Notes under the pieces: model-generated
Seen by the model: the letters and a program-made list of their open reading frames with translations, nothing else
What the model was told of the DNA's origin: nothing
Databases searched by the model: none
From: Actinomycetes bacterium
GTDB taxonomy: Bacteria > Actinomycetota > Acidimicrobiia > Acidimicrobiales > RAAP-2
Assembly: GCA_021800645.1 (NCBI GenBank)
Contig: JAJYYT010000162.1
Location: forward strand, 1-5,425
DNA length: 5,425 bases
Reading direction: 5' to 3'
Translations under genes and position numbers: made by a program
Shown here: piece after piece, positions 1-5,379 of the stretch
How positions within the stretch are numbered: position 1 is the first letter of the stretch
Layout of the letters: each line of letters opens with the position of its first letter

Positions 1-594
1 GAAGCAGAACCCGGATGCGACCAGCTGGCCGACGAAGTCGCGGTACCCCTCCGTGCTCGGGCTCGCGACGAGGCCAACACGAAGCGGCACCTCGGGCACG
101 ACGAGCGCGCGGTTACGCGTGAGGAGACCCTCGGCCTCGAGCGTGCGGAGGAGCGCAGCGCGCTGGGCTGCCAGCCGCCCGAGCAGCGCAGTGACGTCGA
201 GCTCGCTCAGGACAAAACCGATCTCTGCCTTCGGCCGGTAGAAGTCGAGCGTGCCCCGAAGGACCACGACCATCCCGGGCTGGAGCTCGATGCCTTCTCG
301 GGCGAGCGTCGCGCGCAGCGGCCCCCACGTGGACTGCCAGCACTTCACCCTGAGGACCGGGGCCTGGCGGTCTCTCACGGAATCGGGGTCGACGAGGTCC
401 ATGTAGCAGTGACCGCTCCCGTGGCGCTGTTCCGAGACGTGCTGGATCTCGCCGCGCACCCACAGCGCGCGCCGACGCGGGAACGCGCGCTCGAGCGCGC
501 CCTGCACCTCGTCGTAGAGCTCGGCGATGGACAGCGTGTCGGCGTGCTCGTCGGCGAGGAGCTCCCCGGGACCTTGCACCACGGCGCCCACCAT
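1..594 (-). CDS. xseA: Exonuclease VII large subunit, N-terminal part (runs off the left edge)
   Basis: This is the large subunit of exonuclease VII, which with XseB degrades single-stranded DNA to oligonucleotides in the cytoplasm. I translated it by hand from the ATG at 594-592; 198 codons stay open to base 1 with no stop. Residues 21-30 (LSIAELYDEV) begin the OB-fold ssDNA-binding domain. It continues through WVRGEIQH (45-52), GHCYMDLVD (61-69, matching the family GHxYFxLKD) and GMVVVLRGTLDFYRPKAEIG (107-126). RVGLVASPSTEGYRDF (172-187) matches the start of the catalytic domain (family RIGVITSPTGAAIRD). The rest of the catalytic domain is outside the window. No convincing Shine-Dalgarno precedes the ATG; an in-frame GTG at 612-610 is a possible alternative start. 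It is divergent from rnpB, about 90 bp away. The family assignment is strong; the exact start is less certain. Confidence 0.9.
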   Translation of the reverse strand, partial: MVGAVVQGPGELLADEHADTLSIAELYDEVQGALERAFPRRRALWVRGEIQHVSEQRHGSGHCYMDLVDPDSVRDRQAPVLRVKCWQSTWGPLRATLAREGIELQPGMVVVLRGTLDFYRPKAEIGFVLSELDVTALLGRLAAQRAALLRTLEAEGLLTRNRALVVPEVPLRVGLVASPSTEGYRDFVGQLVASGFCF

Positions 595-685: not shown

Positions 686-1064
686 CGACGGTGAGCCGGC
701 CGGGTGGCCGCGGCCCGGGTGGTGCTGCGCACGACGCCGGGTCGAGGAAGGTCGGGACTCCGCAGGGCAGGGTGCTGGCTAACGGCCAGTCGGGGCGACC
801 CGCAGGAAAGTGCCACAGAGAGCAGACCGCCGATGGCGGGCTCCGGCCCGTACAGGCAAGGGTGAAACGGTGCGGCAAGAGCGCACCAGCGATCCGGGCG
901 ACCGGACCGGCTCGGTAAACCCCACCCGGAGCAAGGCCAAGCGTGGGACACGGGCGGCCCGTCCGCCCCGCACGGGGCAGTCCCCAGGTAGGCCGCGTAG
1001 ATGGATGGCCACCCAGGCCTCTTCAGGCCTGACAGGATCCCGCCTACAGGCCGGCTCACCGTCG
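686..1064 (+). ncRNA. rnpB: RNase P RNA (type-A-like architecture, P18 apparently missing)
   Basis: This is the catalytic RNA of RNase P, which removes 5' leaders from tRNA precursors. The conserved blocks appear in order: GAGGAAGGTCGGGACTCC (744-761), AGGGCAGGGTGCTGGCTAAC (764-783), GGAAAGTGCCACAGAGA (804-820), GGGTGAAACGGTG (860-872), GGTAAACCCCACCCGGAGCA (914-933) and TAGATGGATGG (998-1008). Helices found by eye are P1 686-701/1049-1064 (16 perfect pairs), P2 702-709/1007-1014, and P4 749-757/1038-1045 with the universal bulged U at 752. Others are P8 775-779/785-789, P9 with a GCGA loop (791-802), P12 with a UCCG loop (837-850), P13 869-874/882-887, P14 with a GCGA loop (893-906) and P15 from about 944. 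The L15 GGU that pairs with tRNA CCA is at 987-989. The expected P18 hairpin between GGTAGGCCGC and TAGATGGATGG is absent. The ends are set from P1 and the true ends may differ by a few bases. No U-tract terminator follows. Confidence 0.95.
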
Positions 1065-1094: not shown

Positions 1095-2222
1095 TCAGCC
1101 GGCCTGGCTGAAGATCTGACGCGCGATCACGGTCTTCTGGATCTCGTTGGTGCCCTCTTCGAACCGCTGGGCCCGCGCGTCGCGATAGATCCGCTCGATC
1201 GGGTTCGGCTGCCAGTACCCGATGCCGCCGTGCACCTGGAGCGCCTTGTCGGTGACGCGCGTCAGCATGTCGACCCCGTTGAGCTTCGCCATCGACGAGA
1301 GCGCCGCGGCGCCTGGATCCCCCGCCTCCCAGCGACGGGCGGCGTGGAGCACGAGCTGGCGCGCCGCCTCGATGTCCGTCGCGTTCTCGGCGATCCAGTA
1401 CGCGATCGCCTGGCGGGCCGCCAGGGGCTTGCCGAAGGTCTGCCTGCGGCGCGCGTGCTCGACGGCCAGCTCCTGGGCGCGCCGCGCCAACCCGACGCAG
1501 GTCATGCCGATCGCGATCCGGCTCGGGGTGAGGAACCCCGACAACGCGACGTCGAGACCTTGCCCCTCCTCGCCCAGCCGGCTCGACACCGGGACCGGGG
1601 TCCGGTCGAAGACGAGGTGCGCGTGGTCGGTGCCTCGCACCCCCATCGTCTCGGGCATGGCCTCGACCTTCACGCCAGGAGCGCGCCGGTCGACCATGAG
1701 CGCGACCGTCCCGTCCTTGCCACGGCTCCCCGCGACACGCGCGAACAGCAGCCAGTGGTCGCAGGACACGCCGAAGGTGATGAGATGCTTCTCGCCGCTC
1801 AGGTAGTAGGTGTCACCCTCGCGCTCCACGCTGGCCCGGATGTCGGCACCGGTCCCCGCTGTCGGCTCGGTCAACGTGAAGGCCACCATGATGTCGCCAC
1901 GGATCTGGGGGAGGAGGAACCGCTCACGCTGCTCGTCGTTCGCGTACGGCTCGATCGCCCGCCAGATGCCGTTGCACACGTGGACGATCATCCGCAGCGA
2001 CGCATGCGACATGGAGAAGAGCTCGAGAAGCTGCAGGTAGTCGCAGAAGGGCAGGCCTCGACCGCCGAGGGACTCGGGCGCGGCGAGCCTCAGGTACCCG
2101 CGGTCGCGCAGGTCCTCGCGCAGCCCTGCCGGCACGCGTCGCGCCCGCTCGATCTCTGCCGCGTACGCCTCGCCGGGCCCTCTCACGAAGTCGAGGACTT
2201 CGGCGGTCAGTTCGCCAAGCAT
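1095..2222 (-). CDS. Acyl-CoA dehydrogenase family flavoprotein
   Basis: This is a FAD-dependent acyl-CoA dehydrogenase, normally catalysing alpha,beta-desaturation of an acyl-CoA with electrons passed to ETF. From the ATG at 2222 it has 375 residues, the usual family length. The N-terminal helical domain comes first. The middle beta domain carries FTLTEPTAGTGADI (115-128, the family TEPxAGSD signature) and GEKHLITFG (143-151). The C-terminal domain has RQTFGKPLA (260-268) and QVHGGIGY (329-336), both FAD-contacting motifs, and FEEGTNEIQ (354-362), with E356 at the usual catalytic-base position. The frame stays open upstream to a TTG at 2318 inside the preceding gene. GTG codons at 2252 and 2243 are alternative starts, the latter 11 bases after GAAGGA. 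I chose the ATG for family length, although no strong Shine-Dalgarno precedes it. It lies about 50 bp downstream of the fusion gene, so co-transcription is likely. The substrate is unknown; a cyclic acyl-CoA is inferred from the neighbour, and a reductase role is also possible. Confidence 0.9.
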   Translation of the reverse strand: MLGELTAEVLDFVRGPGEAYAAEIERARRVPAGLREDLRDRGYLRLAAPESLGGRGLPFCDYLQLLELFSMSHASLRMIVHVCNGIWRAIEPYANDEQRERFLLPQIRGDIMVAFTLTEPTAGTGADIRASVEREGDTYYLSGEKHLITFGVSCDHWLLFARVAGSRGKDGTVALMVDRRAPGVKVEAMPETMGVRGTDHAHLVFDRTPVPVSSRLGEEGQGLDVALSGFLTPSRIAIGMTCVGLARRAQELAVEHARRRQTFGKPLAARQAIAYWIAENATDIEAARQLVLHAARRWEAGDPGAAALSSMAKLNGVDMLTRVTDKALQVHGGIGYWQPNPIERIYRDARAQRFEEGTNEIQKTVIARQIFSQAG

Positions 2223-2271: not shown

Positions 2272-5200
2272 TCATGCCCTGGCCGAGGGGTCTTCGCCCC
2301 CGTCACCCTCGCCCGCAACGAGCTGGCGTGCGCGCTCGCGCAGGACGTACTTCTGGACCTTCCCCGACGGCGTCCTGGGGAGCCGGTCGACCACCTCCAG
2401 CCGCTCCGGCCAGTATTGCCTGGCGACTCTGTGGCCGTCCAGGAAGCGCTGCACCTCCGTGAGGTCCAAGCCGCCCGAGCGAGGCGTCGTCACCACGAAG
2501 GCGCACGCGCGCTCTCCCAGCCGCTCGTCGGGCATGGCCACGATCGCGACGTCGCCCACCGCAGGATGGGCGTGGAGGAGCTCTTCGATCTCGGCGACGG
2601 GCACCTTCTCGCCGCCCCGGTTGACGACGTCCTTCGTCCGTCCCGAGATGCGCACGTAGCCCGACTCGTCGATCACCGCCAGGTCGCCGGTGCGGTACCA
2701 GCCGTCGGGGGTGAGCGCCTCGGCCGTCAGGTCGGGACGGTCGAGGTAGCCGGTGAACAGGCAATCGGTCGACACCTCGAGGTGGCCCTCCTCCCCCCTC
2801 GCCAGCTCGGCGCCGCGGCCGTCGGTCACCCGGAGGCGCACCCCTTGGAGGGCCCTCCCGTCGGTACCCCAGAGCATGGCGGGGTCGTCGTCGGGGCCCG
2901 ACAGCGAGCCGAGGCACGTCTCGGTGGTCCCCCACGCGCCGCACACGGCCGTGCCGAGCACCCGAGTGGCGCGTTCGGCGAGCCCGCGCGGAACGCCTGC
3001 CCCGGTCACGACGAAGACGCGCAAGGATCCGGGACGCTCGCCGGTCCGCTCCACCGCCTCGACCAGGTCCACGAGGAACGGCGTGGCCGCCTGCACGAAC
3101 GTGGTCCCCCAGCGCCGCATCGCCGCGAGCGCGACGTCGCCGTCCCAGACCGGCTGGACGACCTGGGGAACGCCGAGGACAAGGGCCAGCCACATGCCGT
3201 AGAGAAAGCCCGTCTGATGCGCCATCGGCGAAGGGACGAAGATCCGGTCCGACCCTCCGAGACCGAGATGACGCGCTTCCATCACGGCGGCACGGGTGAG
3301 GCTGTCCATCCGGTGAAGGACGCCCTTGGGCTCACCGGACGTGCCGGAGGTGAACAAGAGCTGGACGACCGCTCTCGGGTCCGGCGCGCGACCCTCGACG
3401 AGCCGTCGGTCGACCGCACCCTCGGCCACCGCTTCGAAGCGGTGCCAGGTAGGTCCACGGCGTGCGCCCGAAGGTGTCGACGACCCGGGTCCAGGTACGC
3501 GTGCGAGCGCGCCGGCCGCACCCACCACGACGACGTCGCGGACCTGCAGGCCTGCAAGCCTTGCCTGCGACAGCGTCGAGGAGGTCTCCGCGACGTAGTC
3601 CCTCCCCCGGAAGCCTCCGGGCACGACGAGCACACGCGCACGGGACCGCTGCAACGCAAGCGTCACCTCGCGCTCACGGAAGATCGGCATGATCGGGCAG
3701 CACACCGCCCCGACACGAGCCGCAGCAAGCGTGACGACGACGAGCTCGCTGCAGTTGGGGAGCTGGTAGGCGACCGGGTCGCCTGGCGCGACGCCGCGCT
3801 CCAAGAGGAACGTCGCGAGCGCGTCGGCGACGTGGTCCAGCTCCCCCCAGGTGACGACGTGGTCGCCGCCGGCGCCCTCGGACACCTGGACCACCGCGGG
3901 ATCGGCAGGCCGCTCGGCGGCCCACCGGCGCACGTGGTCGCCGATCGGGACGGACGTCGCCTCGAACGCCGCTTCGTGGGCCGAGTTGTCCGCTCTCCTC
4001 CGGGCACGAGCCCGCTCGCCGGCGGCGTCACGCGCCGAGCGGCCCACGCCAGCGGGGGACTCGACGGCCATCGGCACGCCCACGGCCGTCATCTCTTCGA
4101 GGAAGCGCGGGTAGGAGATGCGGTAGGCGTTCGGGTAGGTGAGCCGCGTCTCGCCCTCTGCCCGCGAGCCGGCCACCGCCAGCGCCATGAGCACCCGGTG
4201 GTCGTTGAACGAGGAGAGATCGGCCCCGTGCAGGTGGTCCACCCCCTGGCAGACGAGCCGGTCGCCCCTTTGCTCGAGGCGACCTCCCATCCTGTTCAGC
4301 TGCAGCATCGCTGCCACACGGTCCGACTCCTTCAGCCGCACGTGGGCCACGTGGTCGAGCACCGTGGTCCCTTTGGCGAAGGTCCCGAGCACCGACAGGA
4401 CGGGAAGCATGTCCGGGACGCGCCTGCAGTCCACCTCGGTCGGCTCCAGTCTCACTCCGTCGTGACGGACGCGCACCATGCCGGTCCTCGGATCCCGTGA
4501 CATGGGAAGCCCCATGGCGCGCACGACGTCGAGCAGCTCGGACTCGGGGTGGTCCGTCTCGGCCCCCGACAGAGCGGGAAGCCCGCCGAAGAGCACGTCG
4601 GAGGGATGGAGCGCGGTGACCGCCAGCCCGAAGGCGGCCGCCCCGACGTCCGGCGGCAGCGTCAGCGTCGCGGGGCGCGGTCGCTGGCCACCCTCGATCT
4701 CGAAGCGGCGGCCGTCGGGGGATACCTCGACGTCGAGGCCGAATTCGCGCATCATCCTCACGGTGAGCTCGACGTAGGACCGCTCGTTGAACGGCCCCTC
4801 CACGCTGACGACGCTGGGCCCAGAGGCGAACGGAGCCAGGAGCACGAGCCCCGAGATCCACTGGGAGAGCGTGCCCGCGATGCTCACCTTCCCTCCACGC
4901 GGCCGGCGCGGCTCGACACGGATCGGCGGGCACGCGTTCGGCGAGCTGAGCTCCACCCCGAGCCCCGCGAGCGCCTCGAGCAACGGGCCGATCGGGCGTC
5001 GGCGGAGGTACTTCTGGGCGACGACGGTCACCGGCGCGTCCGAGAGCGAGAGGAGGCCGGTCAGGAAGTACAAGGTGGTCCCCGAGCTGCCGACGGACAC
5101 CTCCTCGCCCTTCGGGTGGTACGGGCCGCCCTCCACGACGAAGGTGTCACCGCGGACGTCGATCTTGGTCCCGAGACGGCGAAGCGCCGAGATCGTGTGC

Positions 5201-5367
5201 CGGACGTGGCCGGCGTCGGAGAGCCCGTGGATCCGCGTGGTGCCCTCCGTGAGCGAGGCCATGATCAGCGCTCGGTGCGCGTGGTACTTGGAGCAGGGCA
5301 CCTCGAAGGCCCCTTCGAGCGGGTCGACCGCCTGCTTCACGAGGAGACGGAGCACCTTCGCCGCCAT
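2272..5367 (-). CDS. Fusion protein: EPSP-synthase-like enolpyruvyltransferase domain + AMP-dependent acyl-CoA ligase
   Basis: This is one open frame of 1031 residues. Residues about 8-433 have the EPSP synthase (AroA) fold: CSKYHAHRAL (25-34), VGSSGTT (92-98), RRRPIG (122-127), GTLSQW (165-170), VPD (317-319), VRLKESDR (343-350) and FNDHR (387-391). An Ala/Arg-rich linker (about 434-468) follows. Residues about 469-1018 form a complete ANL-family ligase, which adenylates a carboxylic acid and transfers it to CoA. It shows PIMPIFRERE (558-567, cyclohexanecarboxylate/medium-chain ligase-like), the P-loop LLFTSGTSGEPKG (670-682), GAWGTTE (810-816), YRTGD (891-895), the hinge GRTKD (909-913) and TPSGK with catalytic K1003. 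The ATG at 5367 is preferred over the GTG two codons upstream because AAGGGGG sits 5 bases before it. The AroA domain lacks several shikimate-3-phosphate contacts, so it probably does not make EPSP. Inferred role: converting shikimate or a relative to a cyclic acid and activating it as a CoA thioester, perhaps towards cyclohexanecarboxyl-CoA. I know of no characterised protein with this arrangement. Confidence 0.9.
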   Translation of the reverse strand: MAAKVLRLLVKQAVDPLEGAFEVPCSKYHAHRALIMASLTEGTTRIHGLSDAGHVRHTISALRRLGTKIDVRGDTFVVEGGPYHPKGEEVSVGSSGTTLYFLTGLLSLSDAPVTVVAQKYLRRRPIGPLLEALAGLGVELSSPNACPPIRVEPRRPRGGKVSIAGTLSQWISGLVLLAPFASGPSVVSVEGPFNERSYVELTVRMMREFGLDVEVSPDGRRFEIEGGQRPRPATLTLPPDVGAAAFGLAVTALHPSDVLFGGLPALSGAETDHPESELLDVVRAMGLPMSRDPRTGMVRVRHDGVRLEPTEVDCRRVPDMLPVLSVLGTFAKGTTVLDHVAHVRLKESDRVAAMLQLNRMGGRLEQRGDRLVCQGVDHLHGADLSSFNDHRVLMALAVAGSRAEGETRLTYPNAYRISYPRFLEEMTAVGVPMAVESPAGVGRSARDAAGERARARRRADNSAHEAAFEATSVPIGDHVRRWAAERPADPAVVQVSEGAGGDHVVTWGELDHVADALATFLLERGVAPGDPVAYQLPNCSELVVVTLAAARVGAVCCPIMPIFREREVTLALQRSRARVLVVPGGFRGRDYVAETSSTLSQARLAGLQVRDVVVVGAAGALARVPGPGSSTPSGARRGPTWHRFEAVAEGAVDRRLVEGRAPDPRAVVQLLFTSGTSGEPKGVLHRMDSLTRAAVMEARHLGLGGSDRIFVPSPMAHQTGFLYGMWLALVLGVPQVVQPVWDGDVALAAMRRWGTTFVQAATPFLVDLVEAVERTGERPGSLRVFVVTGAGVPRGLAERATRVLGTAVCGAWGTTETCLGSLSGPDDDPAMLWGTDGRALQGVRLRVTDGRGAELARGEEGHLEVSTDCLFTGYLDRPDLTAEALTPDGWYRTGDLAVIDESGYVRISGRTKDVVNRGGEKVPVAEIEELLHAHPAVGDVAIVAMPDERLGERACAFVVTTPRSGGLDLTEVQRFLDGHRVARQYWPERLEVVDRLPRTPSGKVQKYVLRERARQLVAGEGDGGEDPSARA

Positions 5368-5372
5368 GCGCA

Positions 5373-5379
5373 CCCCCTT
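5373..5379 (-). promoter_or_regulatory. Ribosome binding site of the fusion gene (decides the start)
   Basis: Read on the minus strand, AAGGGGG is followed by TGCGC and then the ATG at 5367-5365, a 5-base spacer. The GTG at 5373-5371 overlaps the end of this purine run, so it could not use it as a Shine-Dalgarno. This favours the ATG start and a protein of 1031 residues. Confidence 0.6.

What the first reader, a model, noticed from the sequence alone, without database searches (positions are those of the whole stretch)
2272..5367. EPSP-synthase-fold domain fused to an acyl-CoA ligase in one reading frame
Both halves look complete by their motifs (AroA blocks from CSKYHAHRAL to FNDHR; ligase blocks from the P-loop to the C-terminal catalytic Lys). 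They are joined by an Ala/Arg-rich linker of about 35 residues with no stop. EPSP synthase fusions are known within the shikimate pathway (the fungal AROM complex), but joining this fold to an acid-CoA ligase implies that the product of the first domain is a free carboxylic acid destined for CoA activation. That is not the fate of EPSP, so the domain order suggests consecutive steps of an uncommon route.
Basis: partly seen in the sequence, partly recalled or inferred. Interest (0 to 1): 0.82.

Follow-up and report, generated by a model that had tools for sequence, protein, structure and literature searches.

The report
Fused starter enzyme for cyclohexane acids
The gene is real: it joins a repurposed relative of a shikimate-pathway enzyme to an acid-CoA ligase, and most likely starts the known bacterial route from shikimate to the cyclohexane rings found in some antibiotics and membrane lipids.

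Summary
Confirmed: one uninterrupted minus-strand frame (ATG 5367 to TGA 2272) encodes a complete EPSP-synthase-fold domain, a linker and a complete acyl-CoA ligase. It is not an artefact: the 120 listed of 923 database hits all have the same three Pfam domains (one is the window itself), and 43 of 44 genome loci with both halves are fused.

The order fusion / acyl-CoA dehydrogenase / FabL-like reductase / old-yellow-enzyme reductase (collinear in 35 of 44 loci) matches plmJK-plmL-chcA-plmM of phoslactomycin, whose starter unit is cyclohexanecarboxyl-CoA. Split versions exist.

Added here: the AroA half keeps the EPSPS catalytic residues but, family-wide, has lost most of the shikimate-3-phosphate pocket (R100Y, S197E, S23Y, a shortened Ser-Ser loop). 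All 12 carrier genomes examined hold another AroA. It is therefore probably not an EPSP synthase despite frequent naming; I infer an unphosphorylated shikimate-type substrate.

In the window, fusion and dehydrogenase lie next to rnpB and xseA; the two reductase genes are not visible. Verdict: new member of a known kind, with a testable substrate question.

The parts
2272..5367 (-). fusion gene (PlmJK-like): EPSP-synthase-fold domain, linker, acyl-CoA ligase; 1031 aa from the ATG at 5367 (an in-frame GTG lies at 5373)
   Evidence: open frame; Pfam; model; relatives
4090..5331 (-). EPSP-synthase-fold domain 'J' (residues 15-428 counted from GTG 5373); keeps K29, R34, R126, D321, K348, E349, R352, H392, R393 but has Y30, Y102, E197, I419 at S3P/PEP-site positions
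   Evidence: PF00275, 259 bits; residue table against E. coli AroA and 12 further AroA
3955..4068 (-). Ala/Arg-rich linker, about residues 436-473
   Evidence: low pLDDT at 440-459; length varies among relatives
2359..3930 (-). acyl-CoA ligase domain 'K' (AMP-binding 482-877, AMP-binding_C 928-1005), with TSGTSGEPKG loop and Lys1005 (catalytic role recalled)
   Evidence: Pfam; TIGR03208 471.8 bits; T675-G677 and K1005 invariant in 34 sequences
1095..2222 (-). acyl-CoA dehydrogenase (PlmL-like), next gene in the same direction; likely ATG at 2222, the frame is open back to 2318
   Evidence: Pfam; follows the fusion in 41 of 44 loci; Glu of the EGT motif kept
692..1062 (+). rnpB, RNase P RNA class A, convergent with the dehydrogenase gene; boundary of the cassette
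   Evidence: Rfam RF00010, 212.7 bits, model positions 1-367 of 367
1..594 (-). xseA (exodeoxyribonuclease VII large subunit), N-terminal part, cut by the window end; housekeeping neighbour
   Evidence: TIGR00237 89 bits (cut-off 180, gene cut) and PF13742; ATG at 594

Best explanation
It is a bifunctional enzyme of cyclohexanecarboxyl-CoA (CHC-CoA) biosynthesis from shikimate, of the PlmJK type. The N-terminal domain is an EPSP-synthase paralogue that keeps the enolpyruvyl-transfer catalytic set but probably no longer recognises the 3-phosphate of S3P; it most likely acts on unphosphorylated shikimate (or a close derivative) to prepare a hydroxyl for loss, by enolpyruvylation or by direct elimination. 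The C-terminal ligase adenylates the carboxylate and makes the CoA ester. The adjacent acyl-CoA dehydrogenase homologue, and in relatives a FabL-like SDR and an FMN 'old yellow' reductase, then dehydrate and reduce the ring to CHC-CoA, a starter unit for polyketides or omega-cyclohexyl fatty acids. Shown here: the fusion, its family, the conserved cassette, the pocket change, and another AroA in carriers. Inferred: substrate, reaction order, final product in this organism, and presence of the two reductases outside the window.
For: Ligase half best matches cyclohexanecarboxylate-CoA ligase. Cassette: of 44 loci with AroA and ligase side by side, 41 have the dehydrogenase next, 38 the SDR nearby, 37 the OYE, 36 all three, 35 of them collinear. 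This order equals plmJK-plmL-chcA-plmM in a table of PMC5852498, whose text says that six genes of the cluster make the CHC-CoA starter (passage and table seen). Labelled shikimate enters the cyclohexane carboxylic acid moiety of ansatrienin (PMC8788734, passage seen). Pocket: in 122 fused sequences S197E 122, R100Y 120 (2 Q), S23Y 121 (1 gap), with K22 121 (1 gap), D313, E341 and R124 122 each kept; 12 AroA of carrier genomes have S or T at 197 (12), R at 100 (12), S at 23 (11, 1 gap). 118 of 120 further J-type hits fit at 23, 169 and 197, gaps allowed. Another AroA in 12 of 12 carriers. Herbiconiux, which carries stand-alone J, is said possibly to contain cyclohexyl-C17:0 (PMC10011130, passage seen).
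Against: In the window the SDR and OYE genes do not follow the dehydrogenase; rnpB and xseA do, and the upstream side is not visible. The fusion scores above the TIGR01356 AroA cut-off (303.6 against 287.25), and ligase and dehydrogenase fall below their CHC-specific NCBIfam cut-offs. K340, a phosphate ligand, is kept, and the pocket varies in the comparison AroA too: 7 of 12 have H at 340 and E at 313, and 3 of 12 lack K411, so the loss of K411 carries little weight. The table in PMC5852498 calls plmJK only an AMP-dependent synthetase and ligase; no PlmJK sequence was aligned. Domain order is no proof of reaction order; a recalled report (not held) speaks of a shikimoyl-CoA synthetase, which would put the ligase first.
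Confidence: 0.8

Rival explanations
1. The cassette feeds a related but different product: a partly reduced or hydroxylated cyclohexene/cyclohexadiene carboxyl-CoA, because this organism has only the fusion and the dehydrogenase here.
For: No SDR or OYE match in the 5.4 kb; the cassette side is closed by rnpB and xseA. Three fusion copies in Streptomyces contigs have no cassette gene near them (L022, L023, L045; L023 has only 1.9 kb downstream).
Against: The missing genes may lie upstream or elsewhere; in the Bacillota locus L032 SDR and OYE lie upstream on the other strand.
Confidence: 0.12
2. The fusion belongs to catabolism: degradation of cyclohexanecarboxylate or shikimate-like acids through an ali-type pathway.
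For: Ligase is 39-46% identical to ligases annotated aliA or cyclohexanecarboxylate-CoA ligase on plasmids; the dehydrogenase hits cyclohexane-1-carbonyl-CoA dehydrogenase models, below their cut-offs.
Against: 0 of 2788 plasmid records with a match cover 80% of the fusion in one place; 36 of the 80 kept genome loci (L043, L046-L080) matched in the ligase part only; the cassette carries two reductases and in 15 of 44 loci a ketosynthase, which suits biosynthesis.
Confidence: 0.05
3. A genuine EPSP synthase that happens to be fused to a ligase; the AroA half still serves chorismate synthesis.
For: Fold, catalytic residues and a score above the TIGR01356 cut-off.
Against: S3P-phosphate pocket changed family-wide; another AroA in 12 of 12 carriers; J-type sequences form a clade apart from 13 comparison AroA (SH-aLRT 100, quick tree with long branches).
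Confidence: 0.03
4. Assembly or sequencing artefact joining two genes.
For: A few relatives are split (L041; L117-L119).
Against: 119 other fused proteins in the list; 43 of 44 loci fused; steady codon-position composition across the junction.
Confidence: 0.005

Closest known systems
PlmJK (PnP1, LmP1) of the phoslactomycin/lactomycin gene clusters
   Same: Order of the cassette in a published table: plmJK (AMP-dependent synthetase and ligase), plmL (dehydrogenase), ChcA (cyclohexenylcarbonyl-CoA reductase), plmM (NADH:FMN oxidoreductase); the clusters use a cyclohexanecarboxyl-CoA starter (PMC5852498). The same four-gene order goes with the fusion in 35 of 44 relatives
   Different: The window sits beside rnpB and xseA, with no polyketide cluster visible, and shows only the first two genes; no PlmJK sequence was compared here. 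The table does not mention an EPSPS part; that J and K stand for AnsJ (EPSPS homologue) and AnsK (ligase) of ansatrienin is recalled
EPSP synthase AroA (EC 2.5.1.19)
   Same: Fold, catalytic Lys/Asp/Glu, PEP-site arginines
   Different: S3P-phosphate pocket largely replaced; in relatives a paralogue beside another AroA; fused to a ligase
Cyclohexanecarboxylate-CoA ligase AliA (TIGR03208)
   Same: Closest curated NCBIfam family of the ligase half; 39-46% identity to annotated AliA-type records
   Different: 471.8 bits against a cut-off of 792.3; fused to J and, in relatives, set in a reductive cassette
Fungal AROM pentafunctional protein
   Same: Also holds an EPSP-synthase domain in a multidomain chain (PDB hits)
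   Different: AROM joins shikimate-pathway steps up to EPSP and has no CoA ligase (recalled)

Membership tests
CHC-CoA bifunctional enzyme (PlmJK type) | EPSPS-fold domain followed by acyl-CoA ligase in one chain | tested here: met
   (that PlmJK itself has this make-up is recalled)
CHC-CoA bifunctional enzyme (PlmJK type) | acyl-CoA dehydrogenase (L) directly downstream | tested here: met
   ORF 1095-2222
CHC-CoA bifunctional enzyme (PlmJK type) | ChcA-like SDR and OYE-type M in the same cluster | tested here: inconclusive
   no match in the 5.4 kb (E up to 1e-10); upstream side not visible and genome not held; both present near 36 of 44 relatives
CHC-CoA bifunctional enzyme (PlmJK type) | sequence orthology to PlmJK or to AnsJ + AnsK | not tested
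   no record of those clusters was fetched
CHC-CoA bifunctional enzyme (PlmJK type) | produces or is needed for CHC-CoA | not testable with these tools
   needs biochemistry or a knockout
EPSP synthase (AroA) | fold and catalytic Lys22, Asp313, Glu341 | tested here: met
EPSP synthase (AroA) | S3P 3-phosphate pocket (Arg100, Ser169/Ser170 loop, Ser197, Lys340) | tested here: not met
   R100Y, S197E and loss of one Ser of the Ser-Ser loop; Ser170 and Lys340 kept; pocket roles from PMC12256929 (passages) mapped by numbering offset
EPSP synthase (AroA) | over the curated cut-off of TIGR01356 | tested here: met
   303.6 against 287.25
EPSP synthase (AroA) | is the organism's chorismate-pathway copy | tested here: inconclusive
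   12 of 12 carrier genomes of relatives have another AroA; the window's own genome is not held
Cyclohexanecarboxylate-CoA ligase (TIGR03208) | over the curated equivalog cut-off | tested here: not met
   471.8 against 792.3 bits

The most novel reading that the evidence does not exclude
The AroA half is an EPSPS-fold enzyme that has changed substrate: with the 3-phosphate pocket turned into a Tyr/Glu pocket, it processes unphosphorylated shikimate (or shikimoyl-CoA), either by transferring enolpyruvate to make a leaving group or by eliminating water without PEP, as the committed step of ring deoxygenation. If so, the many family members now labelled '3-phosphoshikimate 1-carboxyvinyltransferase' are a different enzyme class.
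Probability: 0.5. Interest if true: 0.6.

Novelty: new member of a known kind. Interest (0 to 1): 0.35.

Why it matters
The fusion and its route are known in outline, so the surprise is modest. What is useful: family members are often named EPSP synthase (others cyclohexanecarboxylate-CoA ligase or nothing), yet most of the S3P-phosphate pocket is gone, so genome-based counts of aroA copies can be misled. The near-invariant Tyr30, Tyr102 and Glu197 make the role of the EPSPS-like domain in shikimate-to-cyclohexane chemistry directly testable. The distribution (Actinomycetota, Eremiobacterota, Bacillota; stand-alone J also in Steroidobacteraceae and Herbiconiux) points to possible makers of cyclohexyl lipids or polyketides.

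Tried and rejected
Assembly artefact: rejected by recurrence and codon phase. AROM-like shikimate multienzyme: no ligase in AROM (recalled), and the substrate pocket differs. Catabolic ali cluster: such loci matched in the ligase part only.

Looking for the window's own genome: none is held and no file is laid. Looking for the fusion in nearer genomes gave 5 of 396 in a sample of the phylum of the Acidothermus genome G002 (G002 fused, 4 with the match in a separate ligase frame). XseA of the window rang in 35 of 396 of that sample, best in G177 at 55% identity; around G177 the fusion was found in 0 of 395 and 0 of 150 genomes. Those empty answers had no positive control, 2 or 5 candidates per genome were scored in the rows shown, and they show nothing. 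A motif test for modular PKS in the flanks gave almost nothing and is too crude to use. A wrong-frame translation of L043 was uninformative. Literature: 10 of 10 searches used; 'shikimoyl-CoA' gave 0 papers, 'cyclohexyl fatty acids' with shikimate 0. No search was made for the pocket substitutions themselves, so I do not claim that they are unpublished. A recalled paper on CHC-CoA biosynthesis with a shikimoyl-CoA synthetase and a FAD-dependent dehydratase is not held and was not seen.

Tree caution: fused and split J are intermixed (7 changes by parsimony); branches to the comparison AroA are long, some 'unfused' rows may be contig-edge pieces, so whether fusion or split came first is open.

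Full report

Not an artefact. A search of 5.8 billion proteins gave 923 hits, 120 listed; all 120 listed (one is the window's own protein) have the same three domains; the other 119 are 60-70% identical. Named sources include Acidothermus cellulolyticus, Streptosporangium, Micromonospora, Acidimicrobiales, Streptomyces, Dormibacteria and Vulcanimicrobiaceae. In bacterial and archaeal genome contigs, 121 loci were confirmed and the best 80 kept. 44 of these 80 have AroA and ligase matches side by side (L001-L042, L044, L045), and 43 of the 44 are one reading frame without a stop before the C-terminal end. L041 is split, as are L117-L119, where the two halves lie in different frames. The other 36 kept loci (L043, L046-L080) matched in the ligase part only.

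Cassette. Of the 44 loci, 41 have the dehydrogenase right after the fusion, 38 a FabL-like SDR, 37 an FMN/Pyr_redox reductase and 36 all three (9 kb before to 6 kb after the ligase end); 35 of them are collinear, L032 has SDR and OYE upstream on the other strand; 15 of 44 also have a ketosynthase (family names). The three without any of these (L022, L023, L045) are lone fusions; L022 and L045 lie in Streptomyces genomes that carry a second, cassette-borne copy. The order equals plmJK-plmL-chcA-plmM in the lactomycin/phoslactomycin table of PMC5852498; the text says that six genes of the cluster make the cyclohexanecarboxyl-CoA starter without naming them in the passage seen, and the table calls plmJK an AMP-dependent synthetase and ligase. 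Labelled shikimate is reported to label the cyclohexane carboxylic acid moiety of ansatrienin (PMC8788734, passage seen). Sulfobacillus is reported to hold omega-alicyclic fatty acids and genes for them, built from shikimate (PMC4378227, passages seen); which genes were meant is not said there. Herbiconiux, whose stand-alone J proteins came up, may contain cyclohexyl-C17:0 (PMC10011130, passage seen), although the passages on the new species of that paper do not list it as a major acid.

The AroA half is a changed enzyme. Positions were read on an alignment of 122 fused sequences, 12 further AroA from carrier genomes, one unfused J and E. coli AroA. Kept in the fused set: K22 (121 of 122, one gap), D313, E341, R124, K340, R344, H385, R386 (122 each), R27 (121, one gap). 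Changed: S23Y (121, one gap), R100Y (120; two Q), S197E (122), K411 to I/V/L (122), D49H (122); the Ser169-Ser170 loop is one residue shorter, so one serine is lost (its placing as S169L depends on the alignment). The 12 comparison copies hold S at 23 (11, one gap), R at 100 (12), S or T at 197 (12), D at 49 (11, one gap). Against the reading: they vary too, with H at 340 in 7, E at 313 in 7 and no K at 411 in 3, so K411 and K340 carry little weight. A second set of 120 J-type hits (99 shorter than 500 residues, some perhaps contig-edge pieces) fits at 23, 169 and 197 except P0173 and P0193; position 100 is Y in 119 and F in 1; position 49 is H in 91 and Q in 26, so D49H is not family-wide. 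PMC12256929 (passages seen) assigns the S3P phosphate to Lys358, Arg105, Ser206 and the Ser179 backbone of tobacco EPSPS, which by numbering offset are K340, R100, S197 and S170 of E. coli; Asp331, Glu359 and Lys23 are the catalytic residues. Two of the three side-chain contacts to the S3P phosphate are thus gone while the chemistry set stays. The role of S23 and K411 is recalled. On a quick tree of 80 rows the J clade (67 rows) is separate from 13 comparison rows (SH-aLRT 100), with fused and split forms intermixed.

The carriers do not seem to need it for chorismate. In 12 carrier genomes TIGR01356 rang in each. In 11 there is a second match over the cut-off besides the fusion (that of G002 starts at model position 43, at a contig edge), and G010 has two partial matches below it. 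The control genomes rang in 14 of 14. The fusion itself also passes that cut-off, which may explain why many sources name it 3-phosphoshikimate 1-carboxyvinyltransferase; others name it cyclohexanecarboxylate-CoA ligase.

Ligase and dehydrogenase. The ligase half scores best with cyclohexanecarboxylate-CoA ligase (471.8 bits, cut-off 792.3) and is 39-46% identical to annotated AliA-type ligases on plasmids, none of which is matched over 80% of the fusion (0 of 2788 records). The dehydrogenase is an ordinary acyl-CoA dehydrogenase by sequence and keeps the Glu of the EGT motif.

Surroundings of this copy. The dehydrogenase gene is followed by rnpB on the other strand (692-1062; Rfam RF00010, 212.7 bits) and then xseA (ATG 594, cut by the window). 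No tRNA was found. The long ORFs that the ORF list shows over 692-1062 are therefore probably not genes. The SDR and OYE genes have no match in the window; only 52 bases lie upstream of the GTG at 5373.

Mechanism. I hold it most likely (0.8) that this is the J-K enzyme of CHC-CoA biosynthesis. Within that, I put about 0.5 on the J domain acting on an unphosphorylated shikimate-type substrate. R27, recalled as a carboxylate ligand, is kept, which suits a free acid and hence J before K; a recalled but unseen report of a shikimoyl-CoA synthetase would put K first. Neither order is shown here.

Verdict. Interest is moderate, chiefly for the probable substrate switch of the EPSPS fold and the database naming.

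Noticed in passing
window 692-1062 (+): Full-length RNase P RNA (class A, 212.7 bits) lies between the dehydrogenase gene and xseA; the long ORFs listed over it are probably spurious.
   Followed up: yes
L022 10001-12973; L045 10001-12973; L023 7849-10821: Fusion copies without any cassette gene near them; the genomes of L022 and L045 each hold a second fusion (L009, L038) that has the cassette. The role of the lone copies is unknown.
   Followed up: partly
L001 16943-18202, L002 17194-18420, L008 17358-18575 and others (15 of 44 loci): A beta-ketoacyl synthase gene sits beside the OYE gene, even in the small Acidothermus genome, which suggests a dedicated chain-building partner.
   Followed up: partly
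L041, L117, L118, L119: Split J and K genes that keep the order J, K, dehydrogenase, SDR, so fusion and split forms coexist in Actinomycetota.
   Followed up: partly
L035 10004-13390: A Micromonospora fusion with an enlarged, still open ligase part (two separate ligase matches with about 380 bases between).
   Followed up: no
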